Below are positions 3,672 through 29,350 of a stretch of DNA of 64,000 nucleotides, in pieces. Position 1 is the stretch's first letter. Each line of letters starts with the position of its first letter. The stretch comes from Rhizobium sp. BK316. Lineage in GTDB: Bacteria; Pseudomonadota; Alphaproteobacteria; Rhizobiales; Rhizobiaceae. The stretch is taken from the NCBI RefSeq assembly GCF_014193695.1, contig NZ_JACHZR010000004.1, forward strand, positions 744,001 to 808,000, in the 5' to 3' direction. The notes beneath the pieces are model-generated. The model saw only the letters and a list, made by a program, of their open reading frames with translations. It searched no databases and was not told the DNA's origin. The translations under genes were made by a program, and so were the position numbers.

Positions 3672-3746
3672 TCCCTGGTAGCTCAGCGGTAGAGCATTCG
3701 ACTGTTAATCGACAGGTCGCCGGTTCGAATCCGGCCCGGGGAGCCA
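3672..3746 (+). tRNA. tRNA-Asn (GTT)
   Basis: A 75-base tRNA with acceptor TCCCTGG pairing with CCGGGGA, anticodon GTT in CTGTTAAT, T-arm CGGTTCGAATCCG and encoded CCA. Its last 17 bases are the left attachment core of the integrated element. The integration therefore rebuilds an intact tRNA. Confidence 0.97.
3730..3746 (+). repeat. attL core, 17 bp, in tRNA-Asn
   Basis: TCCGGCCCGGGGAGCCA at the tRNA 3' end is repeated exactly at 29334-29350. The identity stops one base outside on each side, which defines the crossover core. Confidence 0.92.
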
Positions 3747-3786: not shown

Positions 3787-3907
3787 ACTTCGATTTCAAT
3801 GTCTTATCTGATGCGGCTCCGAAATCTGCAACCGTTTCCGCAGCCCCATACTTGTCGAATTGGCTACATTTTCGATACTTTTCCGACCACAGCGGAGAAG
3901 ACCGGTC

Positions 3908-5233
3908 ATGAAATCGCGCGATATTTCGAGATATGTGGTTCAGGATAAGCGCTCTGGGACCTGGCTATATTATCGTCGCGTTCCTCGCGAAGTGGGCCAC
4001 CTCGACGGACGTAGCCACGTCAAGAAGAGCCTGAAGACCGATAGTCATCGGGAAGCTTTGCAGCGGGCGGAGGAAATTCACCGGGCAACTGAAGCAATGT
4101 GGAGATCGCTTCTGCAGGGTGGAGACAGGACGACCTCTATCGCCTCCTACGAAGCCGCGGTGAAAGCCGCACAATCGCTCGGCTTCGTCTACCGTCCGGC
4201 CACCGATATTCAGGATTTGTCGATCGATGAAATGGAGCGACGGCTGAAAATCGCCCATGCGAATCTCGGAAAGGCTCCAGCGGTCGTCGATGCGATGTTA
4301 GGAACAGCCCCCGCCCCTACCCTCCGCATTTCAGATATTTGGAAAGAATACGAAGAGCACAACGCCGCCGGCTTGAAGGGGATGAGTCCGGACCAGCTTC
4401 GAAAGCACAAAGTGTCGCGACTGCGGGCGATCGAGTATGCGAGGGAAGCTCTTGGCGGCGATATGGAACTCGGGGCTATCAAACGCCCGGACGTGCTTAA
4501 AATGCGCGGATGGTGGCTAGAGAAGATCGAGAGCGAAAAGCTCAAGGCCTATTCAGCAAATCGATGCTTCTCTGATCTCAAAGGTATGCTCACGGTCATC
4601 GATGACGCCCTCCAAACCGACTACCGCACAGTGTGGGACAAGGTTCGGCTGAAGGAGACGGTTGCGACAAAATTGGGAAAGCGGCCGCCGTTTCCTGTCG
4701 CATGGGTGCAAGATCGTATCCTGGCGCCCGGGGCGCTGGACACAATGAACGACGACGCGAAGCTGATTGTGCTCACGATGGTCGAAACGGGCGCGCGGCT
4801 CGGCGAGATATGCAATCTCCGTCCGCAGGACATCCGCCTTGACGACGAGGTTCCACACATCGAGGTTGCCGAGCGTGAGGACCGTGTTCAGAAAACCGAA
4901 TACAGCATTCGGCAGATCCCACTCGTCGGCGTCTCTCTTTGGGCGATGAAACAGCGGCCGAACGGTTTCCCTCGCTATGCGGACAGCGCCGACGCGGCTT
5001 CGGCCTTGATCAATAAGGTGATGCTGAGCGCCGGCTTGCGGCCAACCGAGCGCCACACCGTCTACAGCTTGCGACACACTTTTCAGGACCGCATTGAGAA
5101 CGCAGATTGCTCAGACCGGATGCAGGCCGATTTGATGGGGCACGAATTTGGCCGGCCGGCCTATGGCGACGGCGCTGAGATGAAGCGCCGGCAGAAATTC
5201 TTGGACGGCATCAAGTTTAAGTGGCCTCAATAA
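3908..5233 (+). CDS. int: Tyrosine-type site-specific integrase
   Basis: A 441-residue recombinase that would insert and excise the element at tRNA-Asn. The N-terminal region (about 1-60) resembles the DUF6538 arm-binding part of rhizobial phage integrases. The catalytic domain shows the first arginine in TGARLGEICNL (near 297), YSLRHTF (near 387) with tyrosine in place of the usual histidine before SLR, LMGHE (near 410), and the nucleophile in PAYGDG (Tyr419). ATG 3908, with GGAG ten bases upstream, is preferred to a TTG at 3860. No excisionase gene is adjacent; candidates are the HTH proteins at 6979-7542 and 28649-28855. Confidence 0.93.
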   Translation: MKSRDISRYVVQDKRSGTWLYYRRVPREVGHLDGRSHVKKSLKTDSHREALQRAEEIHRATEAMWRSLLQGGDRTTSIASYEAAVKAAQSLGFVYRPATDIQDLSIDEMERRLKIAHANLGKAPAVVDAMLGTAPAPTLRISDIWKEYEEHNAAGLKGMSPDQLRKHKVSRLRAIEYAREALGGDMELGAIKRPDVLKMRGWWLEKIESEKLKAYSANRCFSDLKGMLTVIDDALQTDYRTVWDKVRLKETVATKLGKRPPFPVAWVQDRILAPGALDTMNDDAKLIVLTMVETGARLGEICNLRPQDIRLDDEVPHIEVAEREDRVQKTEYSIRQIPLVGVSLWAMKQRPNGFPRYADSADAASALINKVMLSAGLRPTERHTVYSLRHTFQDRIENADCSDRMQADLMGHEFGRPAYGDGAEMKRRQKFLDGIKFKWPQ

Positions 5234-5863: not shown

Positions 5864-6008
5864 GAGATCCTCCTATGATCTTTGGGTTTAGCGACGGACA
5901 TGAGCTGCAACTCGTGTTCGTCGCGATCAATGTAGACGATCCCTTAAATATGAAAATATAGAAATTTACCATTTACTTTTTCGGCGTTGGATAAACTTCA
6001 TGCCGTTT

Positions 6009-6076
6009 GGAATATTTGCTTAAGACGCTTCCGACTTTATTCGGTTTTCGGCCATTTTATATTCCAAAAGGAATAT
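6009..6076 (+). promoter_or_regulatory. Possible operator of the four-paralogue cassette
   Basis: A perfect inverted repeat, ATATTCC-AAAA-GGAATAT, lies at 6059-6076, 40 bases before the first cassette gene. A further half-site GGAATAT lies at 6009-6015. The surrounding 180 bases are strongly AT-rich, as for a promoter. Confidence 0.45.
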
Positions 6077-6115
6077 TTCACAATCTCAAAATACCGAAAA
6101 AAGTCTGGGGAAAAG

Positions 6116-6361
6116 ATGGAAACGACCCGCCCGCCTGGCCCTACCGTCCCCTCGGATGTACCCGTTGAGAGGATGGAGAAATTGCTCGATCGGCTCGCAC
6201 AAGAAATCGTCGCGGCTGGAGAAGACGGATATAAATTAGTCCATCTCTACGAATGGCTAGAAGGCCAGATACTCGCCCGACGAGCGGTGAACGCCACTCT
6301 CGATCGGGCGAGCGCGCGCGTGGAGCGTAAAAAAAATCAAGGCGGAGGACGGATGGTGTGA
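6116..6361 (+). CDS. Cassette paralogue 1 (unrecognised family)
   Basis: The 81-residue protein consists of little more than the shared module: an N-terminal RPPGPTVP, a helix ERMEKLLDRLAQEIVAAGE, then DGYKLVHLYEWLEGQI and ARRAVNATLDRASARVER. The module looks all-helical, with a charged C-terminal helix. ATG 6116 follows GGGGAAAAG; an upstream extension to 5987 would read through the likely operator and is not used. The next gene starts at a GTG that overlaps this stop, so the genes are translated as one unit. No known function is recognised. Confidence 0.75.
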   Translation: METTRPPGPTVPSDVPVERMEKLLDRLAQEIVAAGEDGYKLVHLYEWLEGQILARRAVNATLDRASARVERKKNQGGGRMV

Positions 6362-6657
6362 GTAGCCGACAGCGGCCAATAGGACCGGACATCCCGCCAG
6401 AAGTTTCGCTTGAGGAGATGGAGCGCTTACTCGATACGGTCGCCATCGAGGTAGTCGCTCTCGGAGACGAAGGCTGGAAGCTGGTTCCTTGGTTCGACTG
6501 GCTCGAATACCAGATCGCAGAACGCCGCAAGATGAATGCCACCCTGGACCGTGCGCGTGCCCGAGTTGAACACCTAGCCAAGCGGGAGGGAGTGACTGTG
6601 GCCGAATTGACCCGCAAAGGTCTGAAGCGGCGAAGACGGAGCCCGGCGCGGAAATGA
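6358..6657 (+). CDS. Cassette paralogue 2 (unrecognised family)
   Basis: The 99-residue protein repeats the module (RPIGPDIPPE, EEMERLLDTVAIEVVALGD, EGWKLVPWFDWLEYQI, NATLDRARARVE) and adds a very basic tail ending KGLKRRRRSPARK. The GTG start overlaps the preceding TGA by four bases (GTGTGA), and GGCGGAGGACGG lies upstream as a ribosome site inside the previous gene. The basic tail could bind nucleic acid; this is inference. Confidence 0.75.
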   Translation: MSSRQRPIGPDIPPEVSLEEMERLLDTVAIEVVALGDEGWKLVPWFDWLEYQIAERRKMNATLDRARARVEHLAKREGVTVAELTRKGLKRRRRSPARK

Positions 6658-6959
6658 AGATGTCTATGGAAGAAGATGTCTATGGAAATAGAATGAGCGC
6701 CGGACCAACGATCGACGAGATGGAGACTTGGCTCGACCGGCTCGCCAGCGAAATCATAGCAGTCGGCGAGCAAGGCTATAAGCTCGTTCCACTCTACGAA
6801 TGGCTTGAAGAGAAGATCGAAGAGCGCCGTAAAGTGAGCGCGACCTTGGAACGAGCGCGGTTTCGGGTGGAGCGCAAGGCAGAAAAGGTCGGGACGACCG
6901 TCGGCGCATCGATCCGCGGTGGGCCAAAACAGAAAAAGCCCGGTTCAAGGCGGAAATGA
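6654..6959 (+). CDS. Cassette paralogue 3 (unrecognised family)
   Basis: A protein of up to 101 residues with the same module (IDEMETWLDRLASEIIAVGE, QGYKLVPLYEWLEEKI, SATLERARFRVERKAEK) and a basic tail ending KQKKPGSRRK. The N-terminus lacks the RPxGPxxPPE segment of the other copies. A 16-bp tandem duplication lies exactly here and shifts the frame, so the true start is uncertain. ATG 6654 overlaps the previous stop, while ATG 6693 would keep only the conserved part. The tail resembles a degraded version of the tail of paralogue 2. Confidence 0.72.
   Translation: MKMSMEEDVYGNRMSAGPTIDEMETWLDRLASEIIAVGEQGYKLVPLYEWLEEKIEERRKVSATLERARFRVERKAEKVGTTVGASIRGGPKQKKPGSRRK
6656..6687 (+). repeat. 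16-bp perfect tandem duplication at a start codon
   Basis: GAAGATGTCTATGGAA occurs twice in direct succession (6656-6671, 6672-6687). Because 16 is not a multiple of three, the second copy is read in another frame. Confidence 0.9.
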
Positions 6960-6978
6960 AGACGGGAGAACAGAAACC

Positions 6979-7542
6979 GTGAGCACCCACGAGCGGCCCG
7001 TCGGACCGGAGCTTCCGCCAGAAATCACCATTGCAGAGATGGAGACTTGGTTGGATCACACGGCAGAGGAAATAGTAGCCCTAAAAGAAGAAGGCTATAA
7101 ACTTGTCCCTTGGTTCGAGTGGCTCGAGGGCCAGATCCAAAAACGGCGGAATGAACAAGCCGCCATGGATCGCGTAAAGGCCAGGATCACAGGCAAGGCC
7201 GCCACATCGGCGGTCACGCTAGACGACATGACTCCACACGACGTGGTGCTCGAGCGATATCCGTGGCTCACCGCGCAGATCCTCAATCGATGGCGCCGTG
7301 AGCGGCGTATTCGCTCATTTCGAGGGAGAGAGGGCGTCGTCGTTTACAGTCGATCGGAGCTCGACGTTGCGCTGGAGGCTGAGTTTCGCTTCGATGGTTC
7401 CCCCGAGCCACGGATGAGGAGACCGCCGTCCGAGCCTGAGAGGCCGACGATGTCTGAAGGCGATCGGATCCGCGAGCGGCTTTATCTCGAAAGGATAAGT
7501 GGCAAGCGGAGACCGGGAAAGCCGAAGCCAGAGAACGCATGA
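6979..7542 (+). CDS. Cassette paralogue 4 with HTH-like extension
   Basis: The protein has 187 residues. Residues 1-75 are the cassette module (RPVGPELPPE, AEMETWLDHTAEEIVALKE, EGYKLVPWFEWLEGQI). Residues 95-140 contain YPWLTAQILNRWRRERRI followed by FRGREGVVVYSRSELDVAL. That pattern resembles the winged helix-turn-helix of MerR/excisionase-type proteins, where a helix is followed by a G-x-V-Y-x-x-S-E-L strand. A charged, proline-rich tail follows. GTG 6979 has GGGAG nine bases upstream. If the fourth copy binds DNA, it may regulate the cassette or help excision. The family is unknown to me. Confidence 0.72.
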   Translation: MSTHERPVGPELPPEITIAEMETWLDHTAEEIVALKEEGYKLVPWFEWLEGQIQKRRNEQAAMDRVKARITGKAATSAVTLDDMTPHDVVLERYPWLTAQILNRWRRERRIRSFRGREGVVVYSRSELDVALEAEFRFDGSPEPRMRRPPSEPERPTMSEGDRIRERLYLERISGKRRPGKPKPENA

Positions 7543-7637
7543 GAAGTTCTGAAGGGGATTTGGCACCTTTAGCCAGGCACTCCCATTGACTCCTGCGTGT
7601 ATTTTGCTCACGTTTAATTGCAACGTGGAGGGGCAAC

Positions 7638-7919
7638 ATGGGACGGAATCTGCATATATCTTACGACCTGAAAAATCCCGGGCAAAATTATGACAACGTG
7701 ATCGCTGCGATCAAACAACTAGGCGACTGGGCGAAAATCCAATACTCGTACTGGTATGTGAATTCGCAATACACGGCAGTACAGGCGCGTGATCATGTCT
7801 GGAGTGCAATGGACGCCAACGATTCACTCTACGTCGTGGACGCATCGAACAACGAAGCTTCCTGGCAGAATATCCCTCCGGAATCATCGAAGTTCATCAT
7901 GGATAACTGGCTCAAGTGA
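7638..7919 (+). CDS. SinR-family (Cas2/VapD-like) small protein
   Basis: This 93-residue protein begins NLHISYDLKNPGQNYD and continues with AIKQLGDWAKIQYSYWYV, AVQARDHVWSAMDANDSLYVV and ASWQNIP. The pattern is that of small proteins annotated as SinR family and related to the ferredoxin-like Cas2/VapD fold. Relatives of that fold include endoribonucleases and toxins. The acidic residue at the end of the first strand (SYDL) is where Cas2 and VapD nucleases keep their aspartate. There is no CRISPR array here. GGAGGGGC lies upstream, and the stop overlaps the next start (GTGA), so the two products are made together. Confidence 0.75.
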   Translation: MGRNLHISYDLKNPGQNYDNVIAAIKQLGDWAKIQYSYWYVNSQYTAVQARDHVWSAMDANDSLYVVDASNNEASWQNIPPESSKFIMDNWLK

Positions 7920-8458
7920 CGATTGACGTCTCAATTCCCGAGTACTTGAAGGATTTCTTTGAGCTAACGACAACGATATCGAAGCCAAGCGCCGATCATC
8001 GAACCATAGCGATCGTGGGCGTGTCTTTCATCGACGATGGAGTCCGGGAAATTCTGGAGTTGGCTATGCCAGGGCTCAATTCCAAATTGCGTGACAAAAT
8101 ATTCGACGGATATGGGCCATTGTCTACGTTGGCTGCGCGCTTGGATGTCGCTCGAGCGCTAGGATTGATGAGGCCGCACGAACACACGATGATCGTCTCA
8201 TTGGCGCGCATTCGGAACCGAATGGCCCATAGTCTTCACGTGCATAATTTCGATCACCCTGACGTTGCGAAAATTCTTGATGAAATAGAGATCACCGTCA
8301 CTGACGGTGCCACCGGCAAAGAGACAACACAGAAAGGTCCGTTTGATGGTCAACCCCGCTGGTCTTTCTATCAGACCTGCATAGGTGGGGTGGCGATGTC
8401 CATCCAAAGGGTAAGAACGGAGCGCTGGCTTGCCAGGAACGGGGATCGCAAGAACTAA
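7916..8458 (+). CDS. MtlR-like protein with HEPN-type motif
   Basis: The protein has 180 residues. Its core, SFIDDGVREIL, then GYGPLSTLAARLDVARALGL and LARIRNRMAH, follows the pattern of the MtlR (mannitol repressor) family. The segment R100-N-R-M-A-H105 fits the R-(N/D/H)-x3-H signature of HEPN ribonucleases. The GTG start overlaps the stop of the SinR-like gene. A Cas2/VapD-like protein coupled to a HEPN-like protein, placed beside a phage integrase, suggests a toxin-antitoxin or anti-phage module. This is inferred from position and motifs only. Confidence 0.7.
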   Translation: MTIDVSIPEYLKDFFELTTTISKPSADHRTIAIVGVSFIDDGVREILELAMPGLNSKLRDKIFDGYGPLSTLAARLDVARALGLMRPHEHTMIVSLARIRNRMAHSLHVHNFDHPDVAKILDEIEITVTDGATGKETTQKGPFDGQPRWSFYQTCIGGVAMSIQRVRTERWLARNGDRKN

Positions 8459-8481
8459 AAAAGCCCGCCCAAAGGGCGGGC
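8454..8481 (-). terminator. Terminator of the leftward late operon
   Basis: On the reverse strand GCCCGCCC-TTT-GGGCGGGC is followed by TTTTTTAG. It ends the long minus-strand operon and overlaps the stop of the MtlR-like gene on the other strand. Confidence 0.8.
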
Positions 8482-8564
8482 GATAGATAACATCGATGTT
8501 CAGACGAAATTCGTCCGATGTCAGGCATGCTCGCACTTTAGCGTGGTGGAGCGCCCTGCATTGT

Positions 8565-8960
8565 TCAGGTAGCTCGAAACCGCATCCGGAATCCGAGCCG
8601 GCGCCGCCACGCGTCGCCGGTCTCACCGCGATCAAAGAAGTCAACGCCATCGTGCGCGATGTCGTCGACTTCAAATCCAGCGATCGAACCGCGGTAGTCG
8701 ATCAGGGTATCGCGGACATCATCACCAAGCACATCGGCGGCTTGGTATGTTGCCGCGACGCAATCAACGATAAAGCGCGAAACTGGATATCGATCGCTTC
8801 CAGAGAGGTGGCGGCCGTCGATCTCATCGACGGAAGAAAGTACGATCGCCGGCAATTGGATTTTCTGAGGCAGTTCAATAGGAAAAATGCGCTGCGCTAC
8901 AACGGCGATGATATCGGCATCGACAGCAAGGATTTCCCGAACGATCGATATCCCGCTCAT
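8565..8960 (-). CDS. DUF3168-like tail-terminator protein
   Basis: The 131-residue protein has the DUF3168 layout: VVAQRIFPIELPQKIQLPAIVL near residues 20-41, then a strand-rich core with FIVDCVAATYQAADVLGDDV and a final RMRFRA strand. Such proteins cap the tail tube and join it to the head in siphoviruses. ATG 8960 overlaps the upstream stop (ATGA). This gene usually precedes the tail-tube and tape-measure genes; here it is the last gene of the operon, two genes after the tape measure. Confidence 0.65.
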   Translation of the reverse strand: MSGISIVREILAVDADIIAVVAQRIFPIELPQKIQLPAIVLSSVDEIDGRHLSGSDRYPVSRFIVDCVAATYQAADVLGDDVRDTLIDYRGSIAGFEVDDIAHDGVDFFDRGETGDAWRRRLGFRMRFRAT

Positions 8961-9583
8961 TGCTTGAACACCCAAGCACCTTCATGAACGACCATCCGAC
9001 GTCCGGTTTCCGGGTCATATTTCTCGTAAGGTTCTAATTGCGCCCAGGCGCCGTCAGTCATCTTCTGAAAGATGAGCCCGCTCTGTGGATCGACCATTTC
9101 CTCCTTCACCATCGGCGCGGCCGTCGACGTCGTTCCCTCGTCTTTAGACGCCCGGGTCGCTGGCTCGATCTCTGACCCCTCTTCGACACTAGGCGCCTTC
9201 CCGGCAACTATCTCGATGGCTTCGGCCAACGTCTTGCCTTTAAACACCCGGATCTGCGCATCGTAGAGACGCAAGCCGATCTGATCGATGGTGAGGCCCC
9301 AAGGAAACCCGGAATCGTCGCCGTTGACCAAGCATACGGCCATGGTGCGCGAAATGATCACGGCGGACGGTTTCAGGAAACCACGCGAGATGATTTCGAA
9401 ATAGTCCTCACCGAAATCTGCTTCCAATTGCTCGAGGGCATCGACGCCCATGAACAGGTAAGCTCCATTGCCAGCTTCTGGCATGGCGACATAGGCAAAG
9501 GAATTCTGGTCAGCCGGCACCGGCGTACCGTCACGTCTGAAGAGCCCCTCAAAGAAGATATGTGCCTTAGAAAAAATACTCAT
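8957..9583 (-). CDS. Phage protein of unknown function after tape measure
   Basis: A 208-residue protein that I cannot place. Residues 1-115 look globular (EGLFRRDGTPVPADQNSFAY, GNGAYLFMGVDALEQLEADF). Residues 125-165 are a polar, acidic linker, and the last 45 residues form a small module rich in tryptophan and tyrosine (GAWAQLEPYEKYDPETGRRM). ATG 9583 is chosen because GGAG lies nine bases upstream and directly abuts an alternative ATG at 9592. It is translationally coupled to the DUF3168-like gene. A tail-assembly role is likely from position only. Confidence 0.6.
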   Translation of the reverse strand: MSIFSKAHIFFEGLFRRDGTPVPADQNSFAYVAMPEAGNGAYLFMGVDALEQLEADFGEDYFEIISRGFLKPSAVIISRTMAVCLVNGDDSGFPWGLTIDQIGLRLYDAQIRVFKGKTLAEAIEIVAGKAPSVEEGSEIEPATRASKDEGTTSTAAPMVKEEMVDPQSGLIFQKMTDGAWAQLEPYEKYDPETGRRMVVHEGAWVFKQ

Positions 9584-19971: not shown

Positions 19972-20964
19972 TCAATTCTGTGGGGGACGTTCCCACACTT
20001 CGACGGCATCGTGAACGACTATCATTCCGTTTTCGCTCACCCAGACTCCGCGTAATATCGTTTGCACGTGCTCCGATCTCTTGAGCTGTTCTATCAGCAC
20101 GTCAGTCGCTTCAGCAGATGCTTGCGGCTGTACTACTGGATGCAATTCCTGCCCGATAATCGTGACAAGCGTGCATGAAACGGGGATTTCTGCATTGGGT
20201 GTGCCACGTGCAACTATTCCTTGGTCGGCCATACAGAAAATCGCGACACCGTTTTCGCCTATCCGCTTTCTAGTTGTGGTGTCGGCATTCAATTGCCCGA
20301 TCAACCCTGCCGTCCTAACCAGATGCATCTGGTCGAAGAGTTCCCCCGTTATTGTCTCCCCAAGTAATGCATATCTTCGATCGACGGTTCTGCTCAGCAA
20401 AACTTCGGCGGCGATTGCCGTCGGGCCATCGAGTACGGATATGAACTGCAAAGTCTGCAATGAGAATGAAGCTGGCTTGCGGATTTCCCCAGCCAACACT
20501 CGAGCCCAAGTTTCACGAAGTTCATCTGAACTCGCTTTCGCTGCATACCCATCGAAAACATTCATCCAGTCGTCCGTCGGACCTTCGGAAGTCGATACCA
20601 CAGGATCTGTCGTGAGGTGCGCTATTGTTTTTTCCGCAACGGCCTCACGATTTTCTTGAGCTCTGTAGATTTCCGATACATGTCGATGCAGCGCACGATC
20701 TAGCAGTGCGGGATCAGCAACGGCAGCACTAGCTGTCGCTTTCGCTATCGCACCCACAATTGTGGTTCTGGCAGCGGTGTCATCTTTAATGCGTTGAGCC
20801 TGCTTTTCCAGCCAGGCTGCGGGAATGTCAGTCGCACCTGCTATAAGTCGGCTGAGGGCCTTGCCGGCCGGCCCGGCGAGAATCTGCGGTACGCCGCCTT
20901 CTGCCAGAGATTTGGCAACGTCAGTCCATGTTGTAGGTAGTTTCTGCTCAGAGTCGTTTGTCAT
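19972..20964 (-). CDS. DUF2806-domain protein
   Basis: The 330-residue protein has a C-terminal half that matches my memory of DUF2806: DDWMNVFDGYAAKASSDELR, then TWARVLAGEIRKPASFSLQT and a long strand-rich end. Residues 1-120 are helical with AGPAGKALSRLIAGATDIPA, a possible membrane-interacting helix. ATG 20964 with GGGGA five bases upstream is the best start. Its function is unknown. It sits between the HNH nuclease and terS, which are normally neighbours, so it is probably an inserted accessory gene. Confidence 0.7.
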   Translation of the reverse strand: MTNDSEQKLPTTWTDVAKSLAEGGVPQILAGPAGKALSRLIAGATDIPAAWLEKQAQRIKDDTAARTTIVGAIAKATASAAVADPALLDRALHRHVSEIYRAQENREAVAEKTIAHLTTDPVVSTSEGPTDDWMNVFDGYAAKASSDELRETWARVLAGEIRKPASFSLQTLQFISVLDGPTAIAAEVLLSRTVDRRYALLGETITGELFDQMHLVRTAGLIGQLNADTTTRKRIGENGVAIFCMADQGIVARGTPNAEIPVSCTLVTIIGQELHPVVQPQASAEATDVLIEQLKRSEHVQTILRGVWVSENGMIVVHDAVEVWERPPQN

Positions 20965-21121
20965 GATCATCCCCATCACGAGATGATCAAAACACGATTC
21001 GCGCCAAAGTCTAGGTCGATTGCAGCCTTGAAACCTTGGCCCTCGTTGGCATGGGGCGGCAGGGAGGTTTCTACCGTTGTCGGCTGGACTGCGCAGCCTC
21101 GAAATTGCCGCCTTGTTGGGT

Positions 21122-21469
21122 TTACTGTTGGCCCTCAAGCATCTGCTTATGCCGGTTATGGCAAGGGTCAGCGCAAAGAGTCTGAAGGTTTTCTGGATCC
21201 CAAAAGAGCGTCTCATCACCGCGGTGAGGTTCGACATGGTCGCAGACCATTGTACCGCTTCTCAGGCTGATGCGGCCGCACATCGCGCATTTGTATCCAT
21301 CCCGGACGAGGATCGACAGACGCAGATCCTGCCAACGCTTCGTGCTGTACCATTTGCGCCAGGGCTGCTCCGCTGCACGATATTGCGTCCGGCTGAGGCC
21401 CTCTCGTTCAGGCTTGATAAGTGGTGCCAATACGGAGATTGATGGCCCCAATATCTTTAGTCTCGCCAT
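21122..21469 (-). CDS. HNH endonuclease of the packaging module
   Basis: The 115-residue protein has WYSTKRWQDLRLSILVRDG, a CAMCG knuckle, VCDHVEPHRGDETLFWDPEN as the HNH core and CHNRHK with further zinc ligands. HNH proteins beside terminase genes assist DNA cutting at cos sites in HK97-type phages. ATG 21469 (MARLKILGP...) has GGGGA nine bases upstream and matches the usual N-terminus; a TTG at 21544 is less likely. Confidence 0.88.
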   Translation of the reverse strand: MARLKILGPSISVLAPLIKPEREGLSRTQYRAAEQPWRKWYSTKRWQDLRLSILVRDGYKCAMCGRISLRSGTMVCDHVEPHRGDETLFWDPENLQTLCADPCHNRHKQMLEGQQ

Positions 21470-22952: not shown

Positions 22953-23216
22953 ATGGCAGACCAGACAGTTGGTAGCATCGTTTCAGATCTTGCCACGAGA
23001 GGTGGCAAGATCTACTTCCTGGAGGCAAATGAGCCATATCCGGTTGATGCAATCCTAACGGCAATCAGGGCCGATCTAATTAGGCAAATGCCTCAAGGGT
23101 ACGGGACGAACGAAGTTATCGAATTGACTTCCCGTGGAAGAGAAGTTGCGGGCCTACCGCCGCAGTTTAGTTTGGTACGCTGGATCGTCGGCTTATCGGC
23201 GCGAAAGCCTCGCTAA
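22953..23216 (+). CDS. Hypothetical protein, 87 residues
   Basis: A soluble protein of 87 residues (GGKIYFLEANEPYPVDAILT, VIELTSRGREVAGLPPQFSL) of unknown function, 34 bases after the membrane-protein gene. AGAGAGATAAG precedes the ATG. Its last four bases overlap the end of the convergent SGNH gene. Confidence 0.55.
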   Translation: MADQTVGSIVSDLATRGGKIYFLEANEPYPVDAILTAIRADLIRQMPQGYGTNEVIELTSRGREVAGLPPQFSLVRWIVGLSARKPR

Positions 23217-23920
23217 ACCTTTCTCAGCGCGACCTTGATCTTATCGAGAATAATCCGCTGCTGCGTCGGCCCCCAGTGTGCATAATCGAGCAGATACCCC
23301 GGAATTGCCGCGCCGCCGCTCGTTTGCAGGTCTGATATATCGACGATTTCACATTGGTCTCGGCTCGAGTATGTCGAGAGCAGCCACGCATTGAAAGCCG
23401 ATATGTTGGAGTTATAGCCCGTGACAGTCGTGCGCGTCGGCGGGACGATCACAAGCGGGCCGGTGAAATAACTCATCACCGAAGCATACAGCCCCTCGAT
23501 CGCGGGGATGTTAGGCCCATCTTGGGTGAGATTGTTCAGCGGTATGCCAGCAAGAACGATGGCGCGAGCATTGGTGAGGCAAGAATAAGAGCCGCTTCGC
23601 AGGCGATAGATCAGCCCCTCGATCGTATCGCCACCAATCCCGAAATTCGATGCAAAAGGGATTTCACCTAGATCGAGCCCGTCGATGTTGCTGTCGCCAA
23701 AGAAGGCAATCTCGCCGCCGTCAATCCGAAGACGTGACTGCTTCCTTCCGTCTGCCTCGACGCGCCCAGCGAAATAGACTCCTGGCGAAAACGAAACGGC
23801 CGTGGGCACGGTACCCAGCAAAAGGTTTTGTCCCTGAGGCCGCTTGAGTTGAGGGGCCATTCCAGAACCTGTTGCCAATCCAGCGCCAGGCCGCGGCGTT
23901 ACGATGGTAGGATCCAGCAT
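23213..23920 (-). CDS. SGNH/GDSL-type hydrolase, tail-associated
   Basis: The 235-residue protein has an SGNH fold signature: block I in IAFFGDSNIDGL (nucleophile serine near residue 76), a glycine block in NFGIGGDTIEG, and the C-terminal DYAHWGP with the Asp-x-x-His pair. A canonical block III GxND was not found; the matching segment reads LAGIPLNNLT. Such enzymes deacetylate or cleave esters of surface polysaccharides. The start shares a base with the stop of the tail-fibre-like gene (TGATG), so it probably acts on the host envelope during adsorption. Confidence 0.75.
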   Translation of the reverse strand: MLDPTIVTPRPGAGLATGSGMAPQLKRPQGQNLLLGTVPTAVSFSPGVYFAGRVEADGRKQSRLRIDGGEIAFFGDSNIDGLDLGEIPFASNFGIGGDTIEGLIYRLRSGSYSCLTNARAIVLAGIPLNNLTQDGPNIPAIEGLYASVMSYFTGPLVIVPPTRTTVTGYNSNISAFNAWLLSTYSSRDQCEIVDISDLQTSGGAAIPGYLLDYAHWGPTQQRIILDKIKVALRKV

Positions 23921-25746
23921 CAGGCGTTCACCTCGGTACGGATGCCGCAAAGATAGCAGCGCTTCAAGTTGAACGTTCTATATCGGATAGAGATTTCATC
24001 GCCCGACGGCTGGCCCGATACCGAGACGATATTCGTCTCGAAATAGGTCCGAGAGCCAAGAGCCTTCAATTGCGTCATGGTTGCCGCCGTCCACGTGGTT
24101 CCGCCGTCGCGGCTCACATCGATCTTGACGTCGGTGTTCAGCGTCAGTGCATCGAGCGCTTCGAAGATGCCAGACACCTTGACCTGTGTGGGTGTGAAAT
24201 CGATGAACTCGAAGGCGGCAGTCACCAGAGCGATGTTCTCTGTGCTGTCAGGCTGCTCGACCTGGATCTGCTCAACGAGAACGATGTCATTGACTGACGT
24301 CGTATATCCGGTTGCCGTCGTGGTGGCTGCGTCGGTTCCAGCCTTATAGTAAAGCGTGAAATCCGCATCAGTGGGATTGATGCGCCCGATCGTGCCTCCT
24401 GCCGTGCACTGTGCGGCAATGATCAGGGGTGAGCCTGCCGTTACGGCATAGCTTACCCAATCCGACCACTCTTCTTCGTTGGCAGCCAGCGTGAGGGTCG
24501 AAACACCACCACCGAATGTCAGCGGAACCTGGTCTCCGGTGAATGATCCGCCCGCGCCTGCGTGCCCAACGTAAACGGAAGAGAAGGTAGCTCCAGAACT
24601 CCCGCCCTTGCAGAGAATCCGGACCTTGTTGCCGCCCTGAGAGATGCGAACGCCAGCAAATTTCTGTCGGAGCGTATTGCCGGCCCATCCGCCTGCCGAC
24701 GTGGCCAAAGGCACATATGAGAACGAGTCTACCTGCTGGACGGGGTTGCCGCCGTTCATAACTCTCCCGTTACCGGGATCAAGAACATATCCGGAAGATG
24801 CGCTTGTGTTGATACCTCCTTCGCCGCCGAAACCATCGGCCAGCCCATTCGCCATGAAAACAGGCTCGGCAACAGCTCTTGAAGAATGGATCGCGCTGAG
24901 TGTGCCGCCGTCAATCGAAATGCGATTGCGAAGGGCGGCGGATAGTTTAACGTCCGTCACCGTATCGTCCGCAACTGTGGCAAAGGGGAATCCCTGCCAT
25001 GCCGCTCCGTCCCAATAGAAGTGAGCGATAGAAGCGGTATTCCAGTAGAAGGCACCCTGCCTAATCGGATCGCCATTCGGATCGCTCGTGGGCGCCGTCG
25101 CATATTCCCCCAAATACTGCGACTGGAACTGCCCAAAAACGGCTTCCATCGCCGCCTGAATAGCAGCGCTTGCCTGGTCGCTGGCGAGGCGGAAAGTCGA
25201 GCCATCCTGCTTGCCAATCAGAATAGAGCCGGCGACGATTGCGCCAGGCGCTACATTCCCGCCGGAATTCGTTTTGATTGTGAGCGGCGAACCGTCATTA
25301 AAGCTGACGGTGACGGGCGAGCCAGTGTTGGTGGTTGAAACCGTCAGCCAAACCTGCGCGGTGCTGGAAATAGGCTGGGCCGAACTCGCATGAATAGCGT
25401 TCGGTGTGCCGGTGCCTTCGTCCTCGGCGATGATGACCGAATACGGGAGATCAGCAACGCGAGTCCATGATCCGGTGCCGGCGGCTCCATTCTTTCTATA
25501 GATACCGCTCAGCGCCTCATCTTGCACGACCCATGCCATGTCGTTTGCGTCGTGCTGCAGATCAGCAAAGAGCTGGGCGCGTGTGAGATACACGCTGCCA
25601 CCAGACCCACCGATTGCTGTGACGAAGCTTTCAAGCCACGCGCCCCACGCACGCACCTCGGATTTCTTGACCTTTTTCGGTCCAGAGGACGGGGAGCCAG
25701 GGATATTGTCATCGGAGAAAACTGTGGCGGCGGTTGGTGCTAACAT
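23920..25746 (-). CDS. Tail-fibre-like / tail surface protein
   Basis: The 608-residue protein is rich in Gly, Thr, Ser and Ala. It has a helical N-terminal segment (KKSEVRAWGAWLESFVTAIG) typical of virion-attachment regions of tail fibres and tailspikes, then GAFYWNTASIAHFYWDGAAW and long beta-rich repeats. ATG 25746 is preferred because the longer frame to 25779 reads through a hairpin-plus-T stretch. A glycan-binding role is inferred from composition and from the esterase gene behind it. Confidence 0.7.
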   Translation of the reverse strand: MLAPTAATVFSDDNIPGSPSSGPKKVKKSEVRAWGAWLESFVTAIGGSGGSVYLTRAQLFADLQHDANDMAWVVQDEALSGIYRKNGAAGTGSWTRVADLPYSVIIAEDEGTGTPNAIHASSAQPISSTAQVWLTVSTTNTGSPVTVSFNDGSPLTIKTNSGGNVAPGAIVAGSILIGKQDGSTFRLASDQASAAIQAAMEAVFGQFQSQYLGEYATAPTSDPNGDPIRQGAFYWNTASIAHFYWDGAAWQGFPFATVADDTVTDVKLSAALRNRISIDGGTLSAIHSSRAVAEPVFMANGLADGFGGEGGINTSASSGYVLDPGNGRVMNGGNPVQQVDSFSYVPLATSAGGWAGNTLRQKFAGVRISQGGNKVRILCKGGSSGATFSSVYVGHAGAGGSFTGDQVPLTFGGGVSTLTLAANEEEWSDWVSYAVTAGSPLIIAAQCTAGGTIGRINPTDADFTLYYKAGTDAATTTATGYTTSVNDIVLVEQIQVEQPDSTENIALVTAAFEFIDFTPTQVKVSGIFEALDALTLNTDVKIDVSRDGGTTWTAATMTQLKALGSRTYFETNIVSVSGQPSGDEISIRYRTFNLKRCYLCGIRTEVNA

Positions 25747-26205: not shown

Positions 26206-27036
26206 ATGGCGAACGTGAGTAATGAGGCCGAAGAATTACACCGCATGTGTCTCGTGTTTAAGGATCTGAATGGAGGACATCGAACCTTAGAAGTGCTCGC
26301 TGCGCTATTTGGCTCTCAACCGGAAGAAGCTGAGTATTATATTTTTCTGTCGGCAATACGTTTGAGATTTCAGCGCTTTCTCAAGGCCGTCGATGAAGCC
26401 GTTTTGAACGAGCGCCATCGGACCAATCTTCGCAATGCGGTTAGGCATCTGATGATGTTCACCGAAATCCGTTATGCGACCAATGGGTGGCCTAACACGA
26501 AGGCGGAGGTTTTTACTGATACCCATCTAATGGCGCTCGACATGGCGGGCGGTGGGTTAGCCGGCGTCGTGCCAGTCGTGGTTCTCAGCGAGGACGAGCG
26601 AACGCAATACGTGGCAGACTTACGTCAAGTCTACGATGAGATTTCTGAAACCCACGATTTTGCCTCCGAGATGGTTGGAAACGCAATCCTAGCCTCAATT
26701 CGAATGATCGAATTATTCGACATTTTTGGATCTATCGCGATAGGTGAAAAGCTAATCCAACTCCATGCAACGGCTAAGCAAGCCGCAGAGCTAGTGCCGA
26801 AAGAGCGACGGGCGAAGTATACAAAAGCTGCAGGTGCCGTTGCGATCGTTCTGGGCGGTTTGGTGTACGCCGACGGGGTGGTGTCCGCCGTCGAGAATTT
26901 TTACACTCGAGCAGGCACCATTGCGGAACAGCTGTTACTGGCTAATCCCCCGCAGTTGAAGCTTTTGCCATCCCCCAAAATATCTCAAGATTCGAACGGA
27001 CACCCCGACGCGGAAGTAACTTCGATCGACGTATGA
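26206..27036 (+). CDS. Accessory protein of unknown function with hydrophobic segment
   Basis: The 276-residue protein is helical through residues 1-195 (AEYYIFLSAIRLRFQRFLKA, HRTNLRNAVRHLMMFTEIRY). A hydrophobic stretch follows near residues 207-225 (AAGAVAIVLGGLVYADGVVS), with a polar tail. It is transcribed against the phage operons and flanked by 280 AT-rich bases, as for a lysogenic-conversion gene. Possibilities include superinfection exclusion or a membrane-acting defence effector. No family is recognised. Confidence 0.6.
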   Translation: MANVSNEAEELHRMCLVFKDLNGGHRTLEVLAALFGSQPEEAEYYIFLSAIRLRFQRFLKAVDEAVLNERHRTNLRNAVRHLMMFTEIRYATNGWPNTKAEVFTDTHLMALDMAGGGLAGVVPVVVLSEDERTQYVADLRQVYDEISETHDFASEMVGNAILASIRMIELFDIFGSIAIGEKLIQLHATAKQAAELVPKERRAKYTKAAGAVAIVLGGLVYADGVVSAVENFYTRAGTIAEQLLLANPPQLKLLPSPKISQDSNGHPDAEVTSIDV

Positions 27037-27109: not shown

Positions 27110-27304
27110 TCACTGGATATTCTCGGGCTTAAGGTTTTTCCGACTAGAGAAGCGCAGCAGTTCCCATCCCAAGGGCGTGATCCGCAGCGGATCTCCCGCG
27201 GCTAGACCGAGGGCGATCAGTTCGGGAATGATGGCACTATCGATCTTCCGTTCCAGCTTCAGGTAAAACAGTGCTTTCTGTTGATCGGGTGTCAGTTCCT
27301 TCAT
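27110..27304 (-). CDS. Small early protein, 64 residues
   Basis: This 64-residue protein (LTPDQQKALFYLKLERKIDS, LIALGLAAGDPLRITPLGWE) has the helix-rich pattern of a small winged-helix-like domain. It starts at an ATG that overlaps the stop of the replication gene (ATGA) and is the last gene of the early operon. Function unknown. Confidence 0.6.
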   Translation of the reverse strand: MKELTPDQQKALFYLKLERKIDSAIIPELIALGLAAGDPLRITPLGWELLRFSSRKNLKPENIQ

Positions 27305-28152
27305 GCCGCCTTCCGATGAATTACTTGTCCCACCCGCTGCCGAAACCAGTCCTCTGTCTCTCTCGATCTCAGGGCGCAGACATCACGCCAATGAAATGGC
27401 ATGAACAGGTCGTTCCCGTCGGTGGTCTTATCGAAGGCCTGCTGAACAATCCGATCCATCGCGCCCGCCGCGATGGTCTTTCCATCTGTCATCTCCACCA
27501 CGATCTCATCGAAGGTATTCAGGAACTCTAGGTCTTCACGATACGCCGAAGGGACAAAATGACGGGGAACCGAAGGGACATTTCTGGCCGCAGCCGAAGG
27601 GACAGTTTCAGATCCTCGCGCGTATCCACCAACATCTTCCCATGGGCAGGCTGAATCTTTATCAGGGGTATTACTATCAGGGATATAGGGACATACGGGT
27701 GTCCCTTCGGTGGATCGTTTCTGTCCCTTCGGTTCTGGCTGTCCCTTCGGTAAATGTCCCTTCGGTGATTGCCCCGCAGCTTCATCCTGTCCCTTCGGTT
27801 CAGGCTGCTTTGCGATGTCTGGTGAGGTGAGGTAGATGCGACGCAACTTGCCGACAACAACACCTTTGTCATCGCGCTTCGGCTGCGTCACACGTTCAAG
27901 GGCGCCAGCATCCTCAAGGAATGACAAGCCACGCTTTGCAGTCTTCACGTCACCTCCGATGGCTTCCGCCAGTTGCTCATCGGTGGGAAAAGCGTATCCG
28001 AGATCTCGGTTCAAGAATCCTGGCAGAACGGCAGCAACCCTCAAGCCTGCTTTTGGAAGGCCCGGTAGGCTCACTCCCATGCTTCTCCATTCGTCGCGCT
28101 GTTCGTTGAAGGTAGCAGCGTCTGAGGAAAAATCGATCCGACGGCTGCTCAA
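27301..28152 (-). CDS. Replication-initiator-like winged-helix protein
   Basis: The 283-residue protein has a winged helix-turn-helix near residues 45-110 (FPTDEQLAEAIGGDVKTAKR, GLSFLEDAGALERV, KLRRIYLT), a low-complexity linker (about 115-205), and a C-terminal domain (about 205-283) with AMDRIVQQAFDKTTDGNDLF. The layout resembles phage O-type or DnaD-like replication proteins. The linker DNA contains eight copies of an 11-bp word in two opposed clusters, as expected if the origin lies inside the gene, as in lambda. The replication role is inference from layout. Confidence 0.7.
   Translation of the reverse strand: MSSRRIDFSSDAATFNEQRDEWRSMGVSLPGLPKAGLRVAAVLPGFLNRDLGYAFPTDEQLAEAIGGDVKTAKRGLSFLEDAGALERVTQPKRDDKGVVVGKLRRIYLTSPDIAKQPEPKGQDEAAGQSPKGHLPKGQPEPKGQKRSTEGTPVCPYIPDSNTPDKDSACPWEDVGGYARGSETVPSAAARNVPSVPRHFVPSAYREDLEFLNTFDEIVVEMTDGKTIAAGAMDRIVQQAFDKTTDGNDLFMPFHWRDVCALRSRETEDWFRQRVGQVIHRKAA
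27546..27604 (+). repeat. Iteron cluster A, three copies
   Basis: CCGAAGGGACA occurs at 27546-27556, 27570-27580 and 27594-27604, with an exact 24-base period. In the gene these copies are read as Val-Pro-Ser. Confidence 0.85.
27605..27699. other. Candidate origin core between the iteron clusters
   Basis: The 95 bases between the opposed clusters end in an AT-richer part with ATCTTTATCAG and TACTATCAGGGATATAG, including a repeated TATCAGGG. This could be the melting region of a phage origin. Confidence 0.4.
27700..27798 (-). repeat. Iteron cluster B, five copies, opposite orientation
   Basis: The reverse complement TGTCCCTTCGG occurs at 27700-27710, 27722-27732, 27740-27750, 27755-27765 and 27788-27798. 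Four copies are read as Pro-Lys-Gly-Gln/His and one, in another codon phase, as Thr-Glu-Gly-Thr. All five have T next to the word (A on the other strand). Confidence 0.85.
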
Positions 28153-28652
28153 AATGCCTCCAACTGTTCCAAGCCATAAGATGCGTCACCTTTCGATGCC
28201 TCCGTACGTCTTTCAAGCTTGTCGACGGCATCGCGGATATTCACCGGAACCTTCCACCAATCAAAAGACCGTAATCCGATCGCTTCGGCGATATCAGCCT
28301 TGAGACGGCCGATATCGAGAAGCGTTAGACCACAATCATCCTCGATATCACTTAGAGATAAACGCACGTTGTCGAGTCGATCAGCTCGGGAATCGCCGCC
28401 AAGGATTGATTTGCTGTCTCGCGCCACTCGGTCCAACGCGGCGCGGTGTTCATCGGTTTCCAACTCGATGACCTGGACAAGTTCATCCCTTAAATTCCGG
28501 TCTTTGGTTGCCACTTCCGTAAGTGCAGCGAGAAGGACTTCCCGCGTAATGTCACCGAGCTCCCGGCAGCCGAAATCCCAGCACGCGGACCAAACCCGGT
28601 CGACGGTTTCTTTCACGAGTCTTGCGGTTTTCACCTTTCTCCAGTTCGTCAC
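28149..28652 (-). CDS. Early protein of unknown function
   Basis: A 167-residue, acidic, mostly helical protein (LETDEHRAALDRVARDSKSI, LTLLDIGRLKADIAEAIGLR). It uses a GTG start overlapping the AlpA-like stop (GTGA) and ends in an ATGA overlap with the replication gene, so it is translated with both. No family is recognised. Confidence 0.65.
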   Translation of the reverse strand: MTNWRKVKTARLVKETVDRVWSACWDFGCRELGDITREVLLAALTEVATKDRNLRDELVQVIELETDEHRAALDRVARDSKSILGGDSRADRLDNVRLSLSDIEDDCGLTLLDIGRLKADIAEAIGLRSFDWWKVPVNIRDAVDKLERRTEASKGDASYGLEQLEAF

Positions 28653-28855
28653 GCGTTGGCCTCAGGTGCTTTTTCCGAATTGAGTTTTTGGAAAGCCTCC
28701 TCGAGGACAGATCGGCGCCACCTTACCGCCCTGATGCCAACCCGCTCACCGGTAGGCAGCAACCCGCGCCGGATTAGGCTGTAGAGCGTCACTTTCGAGA
28801 ATTTACGCTCTTTGCAAATCTGGGATGCTGTCAGGAATTCGTCAGCCTCAGCCAT
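28649..28855 (-). CDS. AlpA/MerR-like helix-turn-helix regulator
   Basis: The 68-residue protein is almost only a helix-turn-helix: FLTASQICKERKFSKVTLYS, LIRRGLLPTG, IRAVRWRRSVLEEA. AlpA-type proteins activate or act as excisionases in integrated elements. GAGGGA precedes ATG 28855, inside the end of the upstream gene. It lies about 480 bases from attR, at the opposite end from the integrase. Confidence 0.78.
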   Translation of the reverse strand: MAEADEFLTASQICKERKFSKVTLYSLIRRGLLPTGERVGIRAVRWRRSVLEEAFQKLNSEKAPEANA

Positions 28856-29333: not shown

Positions 29334-29350
29334 TCCGGCCCGGGGAGCCA
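29334..29350 (+). repeat. attR core, 17 bp
   Basis: An exact copy of the tRNA-Asn 3' end (TCCGGCCCGGGGAGCCA). The bases before it do not form a tRNA, so this copy is only the attachment remnant. Confidence 0.92.

What the first reader, a model, noticed from the sequence alone, without database searches (positions are those of the whole stretch)
27546..27798. Opposed iteron clusters inside a phage replication gene: a candidate origin
Eight exact copies of CCGAAGGGACA occur within 253 bases. Three point one way with an exact 24-base period (27546, 27570, 27594) and five point the other way (27700, 27722, 27740, 27755, 27788). They flank a 95-base core with an AT-richer part. The word is read as Pro-Lys-Gly-Gln/His, as Thr-Glu-Gly-Thr and, in the other cluster, as Val-Pro-Ser. 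Conservation across three codon contexts points to selection on DNA, not protein. Lambda-type phages keep their origin iterons inside the O gene, so the winged-helix protein encoded here may bind them.
Basis: partly seen in the sequence, partly recalled or inferred. Interest (0 to 1): 0.75.

Follow-up and report, generated by a model that had tools for sequence, protein, structure and literature searches.

The report
Phage replication origin inside initiator gene
A prophage seems to keep its DNA replication start site inside the gene for the protein that should bind it, and comparison with related genes suggests that the protein's DNA-reading residues and the repeated DNA word change together, like a lock and its key.

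Summary
Eight exact CCGAAGGGACA copies (three +, 24-bp period; five -) lie in a 283-codon gene of a 25.6-kb tRNA-Asn prophage; the 6.36-Mb genome has only four others, a chance-level number. The gene encodes an O-like winged-helix protein. In its relatives the peptide repeats differ (KGQ+EGT, KGQ+EGS, KVQ+EGS, NGQ+ERT, NGT+ERN, IGP+DRP), yet two reading frames still imply one common 11-base word in 57 of 64 sequences (shuffled pairings: mean 22, maximum 34). So the DNA word is maintained and changes in concert across copies. Among non-linker columns, core bases associate best with residues 70, 68 and 73 at the recognition helix, and the two flank bases with wing residues 99 and 91. Columns 78-89 between them show little link, and the pattern recurs on several tree branches, so plain linkage is unlikely. 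An AT-rich stretch and an inverted half-site follow the iterons. Most likely this is a lambda-type origin inside its initiator gene. Self-recognition is well supported by sequence; binding and origin activity are untested. The kind is known (lambda O, pSK41 Rep). New here is a diversified family in which initiator and origin appear to covary residue by base.

The parts
27301..28152 (-). O-like replication initiator gene, 283 aa (TTG start)
   Evidence: ORF; PHROG 428/270/678/345 replication initiation, E 2.2e-5 to 1.1e-3; homologues
27823..28119 (-). Predicted winged-helix DNA-binding domain (residues about 12-110)
   Evidence: AlphaFold2 model, block pLDDT 92-98; Foldseek/VIA matches to winged-helix proteins
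27910..27948 (-). Recognition helix, residues 69-81; residues 68/70/73/74/76/77 covary with the word core
27856..27882 (-). Wing and its borders, residues 91-99; residues 91/94/98/99 covary with the two flank bases of the word
27788..27798 (-). Iteron copy 1, read PKGQ
27755..27765 (-). Iteron copy 2, read PKGH
27740..27750 (-). Iteron copy 3, read PKGQ
27722..27732 (-). Iteron copy 4, read PKGQ
27700..27710 (-). Iteron copy 5, second frame, read TEGT
27688..27693 (+). Inverted half-site of the word (GGGACA on +), 6 bp from copy 5; own-word half-sites also visible in L016-L020
   Evidence: protein-level test, partly met
27648..27695 (.). AT-richest stretch of the gene, candidate DNA-unwinding element
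27594..27604 (+). Opposed iteron copy 6, antisense, gene read VPS
27570..27580 (+). Opposed iteron copy 7, antisense, gene read VPS
27546..27556 (+). Opposed iteron copy 8, antisense, gene read VPS
27307..27531 (-). C-terminal helical domain (residues 208-282), separated from the winged helix by a low-confidence linker that is encoded by the origin DNA
3730..3746 (+). Left attachment repeat, 3' end of tRNA-Asn (17 bp)
29334..29350 (+). Right attachment repeat (identical 17 bp); the prophage is about 25.6 kb

Best explanation
This is a replication origin embedded in the gene of its own initiator. The N-terminal winged helix binds the 11-base iterons in the linker-coding DNA of the same gene: recognition helix on the core GAAGGGACA, wing on the preceding CC. 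Several molecules bound on the sense array (and here also on the opposed array) would melt the AT-rich stretch between them, and the C-terminal helical domain would recruit host replication proteins. Shown by sequence: the repeats, their maintenance as DNA, their residue-by-base covariation with the winged helix, the adjacent AT-rich stretch and the prophage setting. Inferred: physical binding, melting, helicase recruitment, origin activity.
For: Exact repeats far above chance and above synonymous recoding. O-like PHROG matches. Two-frame consistency of the word in 57 of 64 sequences; shuffled pairing mean 22.2, max 34 in 2,000. Each of the seven genes with DNA repeats one word, 3 to 8 copies at up to one mismatch, none in the up to 3 kb of flank searched. 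Association over non-linker columns filled in at least 70% of 57 rows: best columns for the core are 70, 68, 73, for the flank 99, 91, 98; base 4 G or C matches residue 73 K/Q or G/R in 56 of 56 rows that have it, base 6 T matches Ser70 in 12 of 12, flank GT matches Ala99 in 27 of 27 and CC matches V/I/M99 in 28 of 28. Residues 78-89, nearer the linker, score -0.02 to 0.25 for the core against 1.23, 1.40 and 0.77 at 68, 70 and 73. On a tree without residues 58-166, independent pairs agree 7 of 7 (base 6), 7 of 7 (flank), 8.9 of 10 on average with none opposed (base 7) and 4 of 4 (base 4, too few for significance) (quick tree). On the careful tree, among 100-101 columns of residues 1-108, columns 70, 99, 70 and 73 come first, 73 level with 76 on pairs. 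Leave-one-out: residues 68/70/73/74 give the core in 52 of 57, the nearest relative by the rest of the protein 25 of 57, four random columns mean 25.4 and max 37. The gene's highest 40-base AT content is reached beside the last sense iteron in 6 of 7 genes.
Against: No experiment. The AT-rich stretch is modest (55-65% AT in the six genes) and in L025 the AT peak lies elsewhere; in L020 it is also reached over the iteron itself. No helicase or loader gene recognised next door. Opposed iterons are not general: of seven genes only the window (3), L018 (2) and L020 (1, one mismatch) have antisense copies. Seven of 64 sequences fail the two-frame test. Antisense tripeptides follow the predicted word only in part, as predicted of all xPS/xRS triplets: GAAGGGACA 16 of 34, GAAGGGTCA 6 of 21, GAAGGTGCA 3 of 5, GAAGGTTCA 2 of 15, GAACGGACA 0 of 6, GAACGGAAC 0 of 1. 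The inverted half-site is encodable in 37 of 56, in none of nine GAAGGTTCA and two of eight GAAGGGTCA proteins. Base 7 has three exceptions to the residue-70 rule (P0048, P0049, P0057), and inside the GAAGGG words alone its pairs do not reach significance (median p 0.0625). Flank and core also show moderate cross-association (flank 0.41-0.43 at 68 and 70, core 0.43-0.50 at 99 and 94). For P0049 and P0057 base 4 was ambiguous (A or C) and I set it to C. Most words are inferred from protein sequence, only seven genes were read as DNA, and the rules were found on the data they are tested on.
Confidence: 0.84

Rival explanations
1. The protein binds the repeats, but as an autoregulatory operator or copy-control handle inside its gene rather than as an origin.
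For: Covariation shows self-recognition only, and many of the winged-helix matches are transcription regulators.
Against: O-like initiator PHROG matches, the AT-rich stretch beside the array in 6 of 7 genes and the place in the middle of the gene resemble lambda ori and pSK41 Rep (passages).
Confidence: 0.12
2. Protein-level repeats: KGQ-type linker repeats expanded for a protein function and the DNA identity is a by-product of recent duplication.
For: Four of eight copies are read in one frame; recent duplication gives identical codons, and the sequence around copies is partly alike (63-73% over 30 bases).
Against: The same word sits in a second frame and antisense; in relatives the peptides in both frames change in step with a single DNA word; the linker is predicted with low confidence, as for disorder.
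Confidence: 0.02
3. Linkage: winged helix and repeats are exchanged together as a cassette, so they covary without any contact. (Exchange as a cassette could also coexist with the best explanation, so these odds are not exclusive.)
For: The two lie within about 400 bp, and a group with another C-terminal region carries the same cassette types.
Against: Columns 78-89, closer to the repeats than the recognition helix, show little association with the core; core and flank occur in several combinations and peak at different places, helix and wing.
Confidence: 0.05

Closest known systems
Phage lambda O protein and ori-lambda (PMC4488673, PMC7466680: passages seen)
   Same: Initiator gene with iterons in its middle, bound by the N-terminal half of the protein, and an AT-rich segment beside them.
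   Different: Lambda has four 19-bp iterons (near-palindromic, recalled) and a P gene next door (recalled); here 11-bp non-palindromic words, 3-8 copies, sometimes opposed, no P-like neighbour recognised. Two relatives, P0003 and P0057, found no match in 50,697 phage records; the window protein itself was not run there.
Staphylococcal plasmid pSK41 Rep, RepA_N type (PMC5703833: passages seen)
pPR9 chimeric Rep with pfam13730 N-terminus (PMC5703833: passages seen)
   Same: Phage-like N-terminal domain exchanged together with its origin onto another C-terminal domain.
   Different: The window protein matches HTH_36 (PF13730) only below its cut-off (13.8 against 25 bits).
V. cholerae PLE RepA and its origin (PMC8263062: passages seen)
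   Same: The DNA-binding domain covaries with the origin, and origin/initiator modules are exchanged.
   Different: There the origin is intergenic and five PLEs fall into two groups; here it is coding DNA with nine inferred core words.

Membership tests
Lambda O-type initiator with origin inside its gene | Initiator-like protein with N-terminal DNA-binding domain | tested here: met
   PHROG O-like matches, weak; winged-helix model
Lambda O-type initiator with origin inside its gene | Tandem iterons in the middle of the initiator gene | tested here: met
   repeated words in 7 of 7 genes
Lambda O-type initiator with origin inside its gene | AT-rich segment adjoining the iterons | tested here: met
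   6 of 7 genes, only moderate AT
Lambda O-type initiator with origin inside its gene | Adjacent P-type helicase loader | tested here: inconclusive
   None recognised among the ORFs scanned; not all ORFs scanned
Lambda O-type initiator with origin inside its gene | Binding of the initiator to the iterons and replication from the site | not testable with these tools
   covariation is indirect support only
RepA_N (PF06970) plasmid initiators | RepA_N Pfam match | tested here: not met
   one search lists no RepA_N match for the window protein at E up to 0.1
HTH_36 (PF13730) proteins | Pfam match above the curated cut-off | tested here: inconclusive
   13.8 bits against 25 for the window protein; PF13730 is precomputed for two of the homologues listed (P0021, P0028)

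The most novel reading that the evidence does not exclude
A phage initiator family that repeatedly changes its origin word. A few residues of the recognition helix (70, 73, 74, with 68) set the iteron core and wing residues (91, 98, 99) set the flank; each change rewrites the iterons and with them the protein's own linker in two or more reading frames. This yields many distinct origin types, including two in one Aquamicrobium aerolatum genome, perhaps to avoid incompatibility or origin-directed parasites and defences.
Probability: 0.62. Interest if true: 0.78.

Novelty: new variant of a known kind. Interest (0 to 1): 0.64.

Why it matters
Initiators that carry their own origin hold protein and binding site in one gene, so sequence databases contain matched pairs. 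In this family the protein sequence alone usually reveals its binding word, because two reading frames must agree. That gives a natural data set for how winged-helix proteins change specificity, makes origin words predictable from a few residues, and offers a direct test of whether phages diversify origins to avoid incompatibility, as has been suggested for a chimeric staphylococcal plasmid initiator (PMC5703833, passage) or for escape from an origin-directed nuclease in PLE satellites (PMC8263062, passage).

Tried and rejected
Viral pattern scan for two tandem words: one hit, L015, an unrelated low-complexity repeat gene (GAEGTA-type repeat). Viral scan with a FMPFHW motif: 10 loci, none a relative. 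Viral scans with the window protein, P0041 and P0017: no relatives; with the alignment: one relative of 10 stretches, L020. Genome contigs: four relatives of 10 stretches. Phage and plasmid records: no match for P0003, P0057 (phages) or P0003, P0017 (plasmids). Other genomes: 60 relatives had no tandem word; matches in 2 of 397 (order), 4 of 394 (family) and 1 of 148 (own genus) genomes, each count including the own genome; 1 of 6 and 1 of 8 in two other genera, both known; a second family search gave only known hits. Dropped before counting: L022 (match over about 70 residues only) and the loci L021, L023, L024, L026 and L037, which repeat the window, L016, L018, L017 and L018. The antisense VPS copies as a general third frame: only partly supported, not relied on. 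A 25-base tRNA end as attachment repeat was absent at the right end; a 17-base repeat was found instead. P0064 was misaligned when added automatically; its motifs VNGQ and GERT were read by eye and fit the rule, so the out-of-sample check is only two proteins, one by eye; residue 91 of P0063 (Thr) does not follow the flank rule although residues 98 and 99 do. Fold search gave no match at E 0.001 or below, so the fold identity is generic winged helix. Nine paper searches listed no title or abstract on residue-by-base covariation for origin-in-gene initiators; the library holds only open-licence papers and only four papers were opened, for passages.

Full report
Observation. The eight exact CCGAAGGGACA copies are real and where stated. 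The shuffle expectation for the whole window is 0.03. In the 6.36-Mb genome there are 12 copies, eight here and four scattered singles; a random 11-mer would give about three. Synonymous recoding of the gene (20,000 draws, codons pooled from six prophage ORFs) gives 0.26 copies on average and at most 4.

Setting. The gene (27301-28152, minus strand) lies near the right end of a prophage bounded by an identical 17-bp repeat, the 3' end of tRNA-Asn at 3730-3746 and a copy at 29334-29350. Inside are an integrase (3860-5233), tape measure, portal, major head and terminase genes and a tail fibre gene. The gene's product matches O-like replication initiation PHROGs weakly (best E 2.2e-5) and a DnaD-like helicase loader family at E 0.0056. 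Two relatives clearly sit among phage genes: L020 has integrase, Arc-like repressor, HNH and terminase small subunit genes, L018 has integrase and terminase large subunit genes. The ten ORFs of the next call, mostly from L016, gave no clear structural gene. The unnamed host belongs to the family that also holds Aquamicrobium and Aureimonas: G520 and G768 share contig lengths with those records. That this is Rhizobiaceae in GTDB is recalled.

Two-frame test. The protein searches gave 50 proteins, the window's own among them, 61 (12 new) and 13 (3 new). The alignment used for statistics holds 65 rows: P0001-P0062 and three translated loci, L019, L020 and L025. At fixed columns, the last frame-1 motif (PKGQ in the window) and the frame-2 motif (TEGT) were asked whether one DNA word could encode both. 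One row (P0050) was dropped for gaps. Of 64, 57 are compatible, 55 of these with a unique 11-mer. Shuffling the pairings gives mean 22.2 and maximum 34 in 2,000 trials; random four-residue windows are compatible in 8 of 3,168 pairs. Words include CCGAAGGGACA, CCGAAGGGTCA, GTGAAGGTTCA, GTGAACGGACA, GTGAACGGAAC and GTGATCGGCCC. The seven failures are P0014, P0039, P0045, P0053, P0055, P0058 and L019; several have a degenerate last copy, and L019 is frameshifted.

DNA check. In all seven distinct genes with DNA (window, L016-L020, L025) one word is repeated in the gene, 3 to 8 copies at up to one mismatch, and is not seen in the up to 3 kb of flank searched on either side. There are five different words among the seven: L016, L019 and L020 share one. 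The last two sense copies start 22 bp apart in six of the seven (L019 excepted), and an 18-bp spacing precedes them in five. Antisense copies occur in the window (3), L018 (2) and L020 (1, one mismatch).

Covariation. Mutual information of each non-linker column (filled in at least 70% of 57 rows, rows weighted at 80% identity) with the word was corrected by permutation. For the nine-base core the first columns are 70, 68 and 73. Base 4 (G or C) matches residue 73 (K/Q or G/R) in 56 of 56 rows that have it; base 6 T matches Ser70 in 12 of 12; flank GT matches Ala99 in 27 of 27 and CC matches Val/Ile/Met99 in 28 of 28. P0049 and P0057 were ambiguous at base 4 and set to C. Residue by residue (unweighted, 56 rows, residues 50-110) the core peaks at 64-77, highest at 70 and 68, and the flank at 90-99, highest at 91 and 99; residues 78-89 score -0.02 to 0.25 for the core. 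There is moderate cross-association (flank 0.41-0.43 at 68 and 70; core 0.43-0.50 at 99 and 94). The gap at 78-89 speaks against simple linkage, which should be strongest next to the repeats. On a tree without residues 58-166 the independent-pair counts are 7 of 7 for base 6 (p 0.016), 7 of 7 for the flank (p 0.016), on average 8.9 same and none opposed of 10 for base 7 (median p 0.004) and 4 of 4 for base 4 (p 0.125); inside the GAAGGG words alone base 7 gives 4.7 of 5 (median p 0.0625). On a more careful tree there are fewer supported pairs (6, 5, 8 and 3), but among the 100-101 columns tested, all from residues 1-108, columns 70, 99, 70 and 73 come first; for base 4, column 76 equals 73 on pairs. 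Leave-one-out prediction of the core: 52 of 57 from residues 68/70/73/74, 25 of 57 from the nearest relative by the rest of the protein, mean 25.4 and maximum 37 from four random columns; for the flank 55 of 57 from 91/98/99 against 45 of 57. These rules were found on the same data. Two later proteins agree in the main: P0063 by script (residue 91 does not fit) and P0064 by eye.

Origin anatomy. The highest 40-base AT content of the gene is reached beside the last sense iteron in six of seven genes (55-65% AT; in L020 also over the iteron; L025 differs). In L016-L020 this stretch contains AATATACC, read in one frame as R-I-Y-P (L016, L017) and in another as P-N-I-P (L018, L020), again a hint of selection on DNA. 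An inverted half-site follows the frame-2 iteron: GGGACA-N6-TGTCCC in the window, CGGACA-N6-TGTCCG in L020, with own-word versions at 5-8 bp in L016-L019 (read). Across proteins a five-base half-site is encodable in 37 of 56 (permutation mean 18.0, maximum 25 in 5,000), but in none of nine GAAGGTTCA proteins and two of eight GAAGGGTCA proteins; for these words the full six-base half-site in the window's frame would need a TGA stop (inference).

Transitional and co-resident cases. P0025 mixes three KVQ/KVH and two KGQ copies, as if caught in a change of word. Aquamicrobium aerolatum carries two relatives (L016, L017; proteins 77% identical) with different words, GAACGGACA and GAACGGAAC, and Arg or Lys at residue 74. 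This fits origin divergence that avoids cross-talk, but it is one genome.

Comparison and verdict. Origins inside initiator genes are known from lambda O (PMC4488673, PMC7466680; passages) and pSK41 Rep (PMC5703833; passages), and covariation of an initiator's DNA-binding domain with its origin from PLE RepA (PMC8263062; passages). The present family is a new variant: short non-palindromic coding iterons under two-frame constraint, many words, and a residue-level correspondence. Sequence evidence for self-recognition is strong; origin function is inferred.

Noticed in passing
window 3730-3746 and 29334-29350: Identical 17-bp repeats delimit a 25.6-kb prophage in tRNA-Asn.
   Followed up: yes
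window 5987-8987 (+): Run of small plus-strand ORFs between integrase and tail genes, opposite to the structural genes; 5 of 7 scanned have no PHROG match, 2 match families of unknown function, one of these with a sub-threshold MtlR match. Possible cargo genes.
   Followed up: partly
window 26206-27036 (+): 276-aa ORF without a Pfam or PHROG match beside the initiator gene, opposite strand.
   Followed up: no
window 23213-23950 (-): Weak, sub-threshold GDSL-like hydrolase match directly after the tail fibre gene.
   Followed up: no
window 19972-21237 (-): DUF2806 protein between terminase and HNH genes.
   Followed up: no
window 28649-28855 (-): Small HTH_17/excisionase-like gene two genes upstream of the initiator.
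   Followed up: no
L016 and L017: Two related initiators with different iteron words in one Aquamicrobium aerolatum genome.
   Followed up: partly
L019 6001-6773: Kaistia terrae relative is frameshifted around the linker, probably a decayed copy.
   Followed up: no
P0038, P0041, P0042, P0043, P0045, P0046, P0059, P0060, P0062: Nine-row group on the tree with a different C-terminal region (P0038 is short) but the same kind of winged helix and repeats, suggesting an exchangeable binding-plus-origin cassette.
   Followed up: partly
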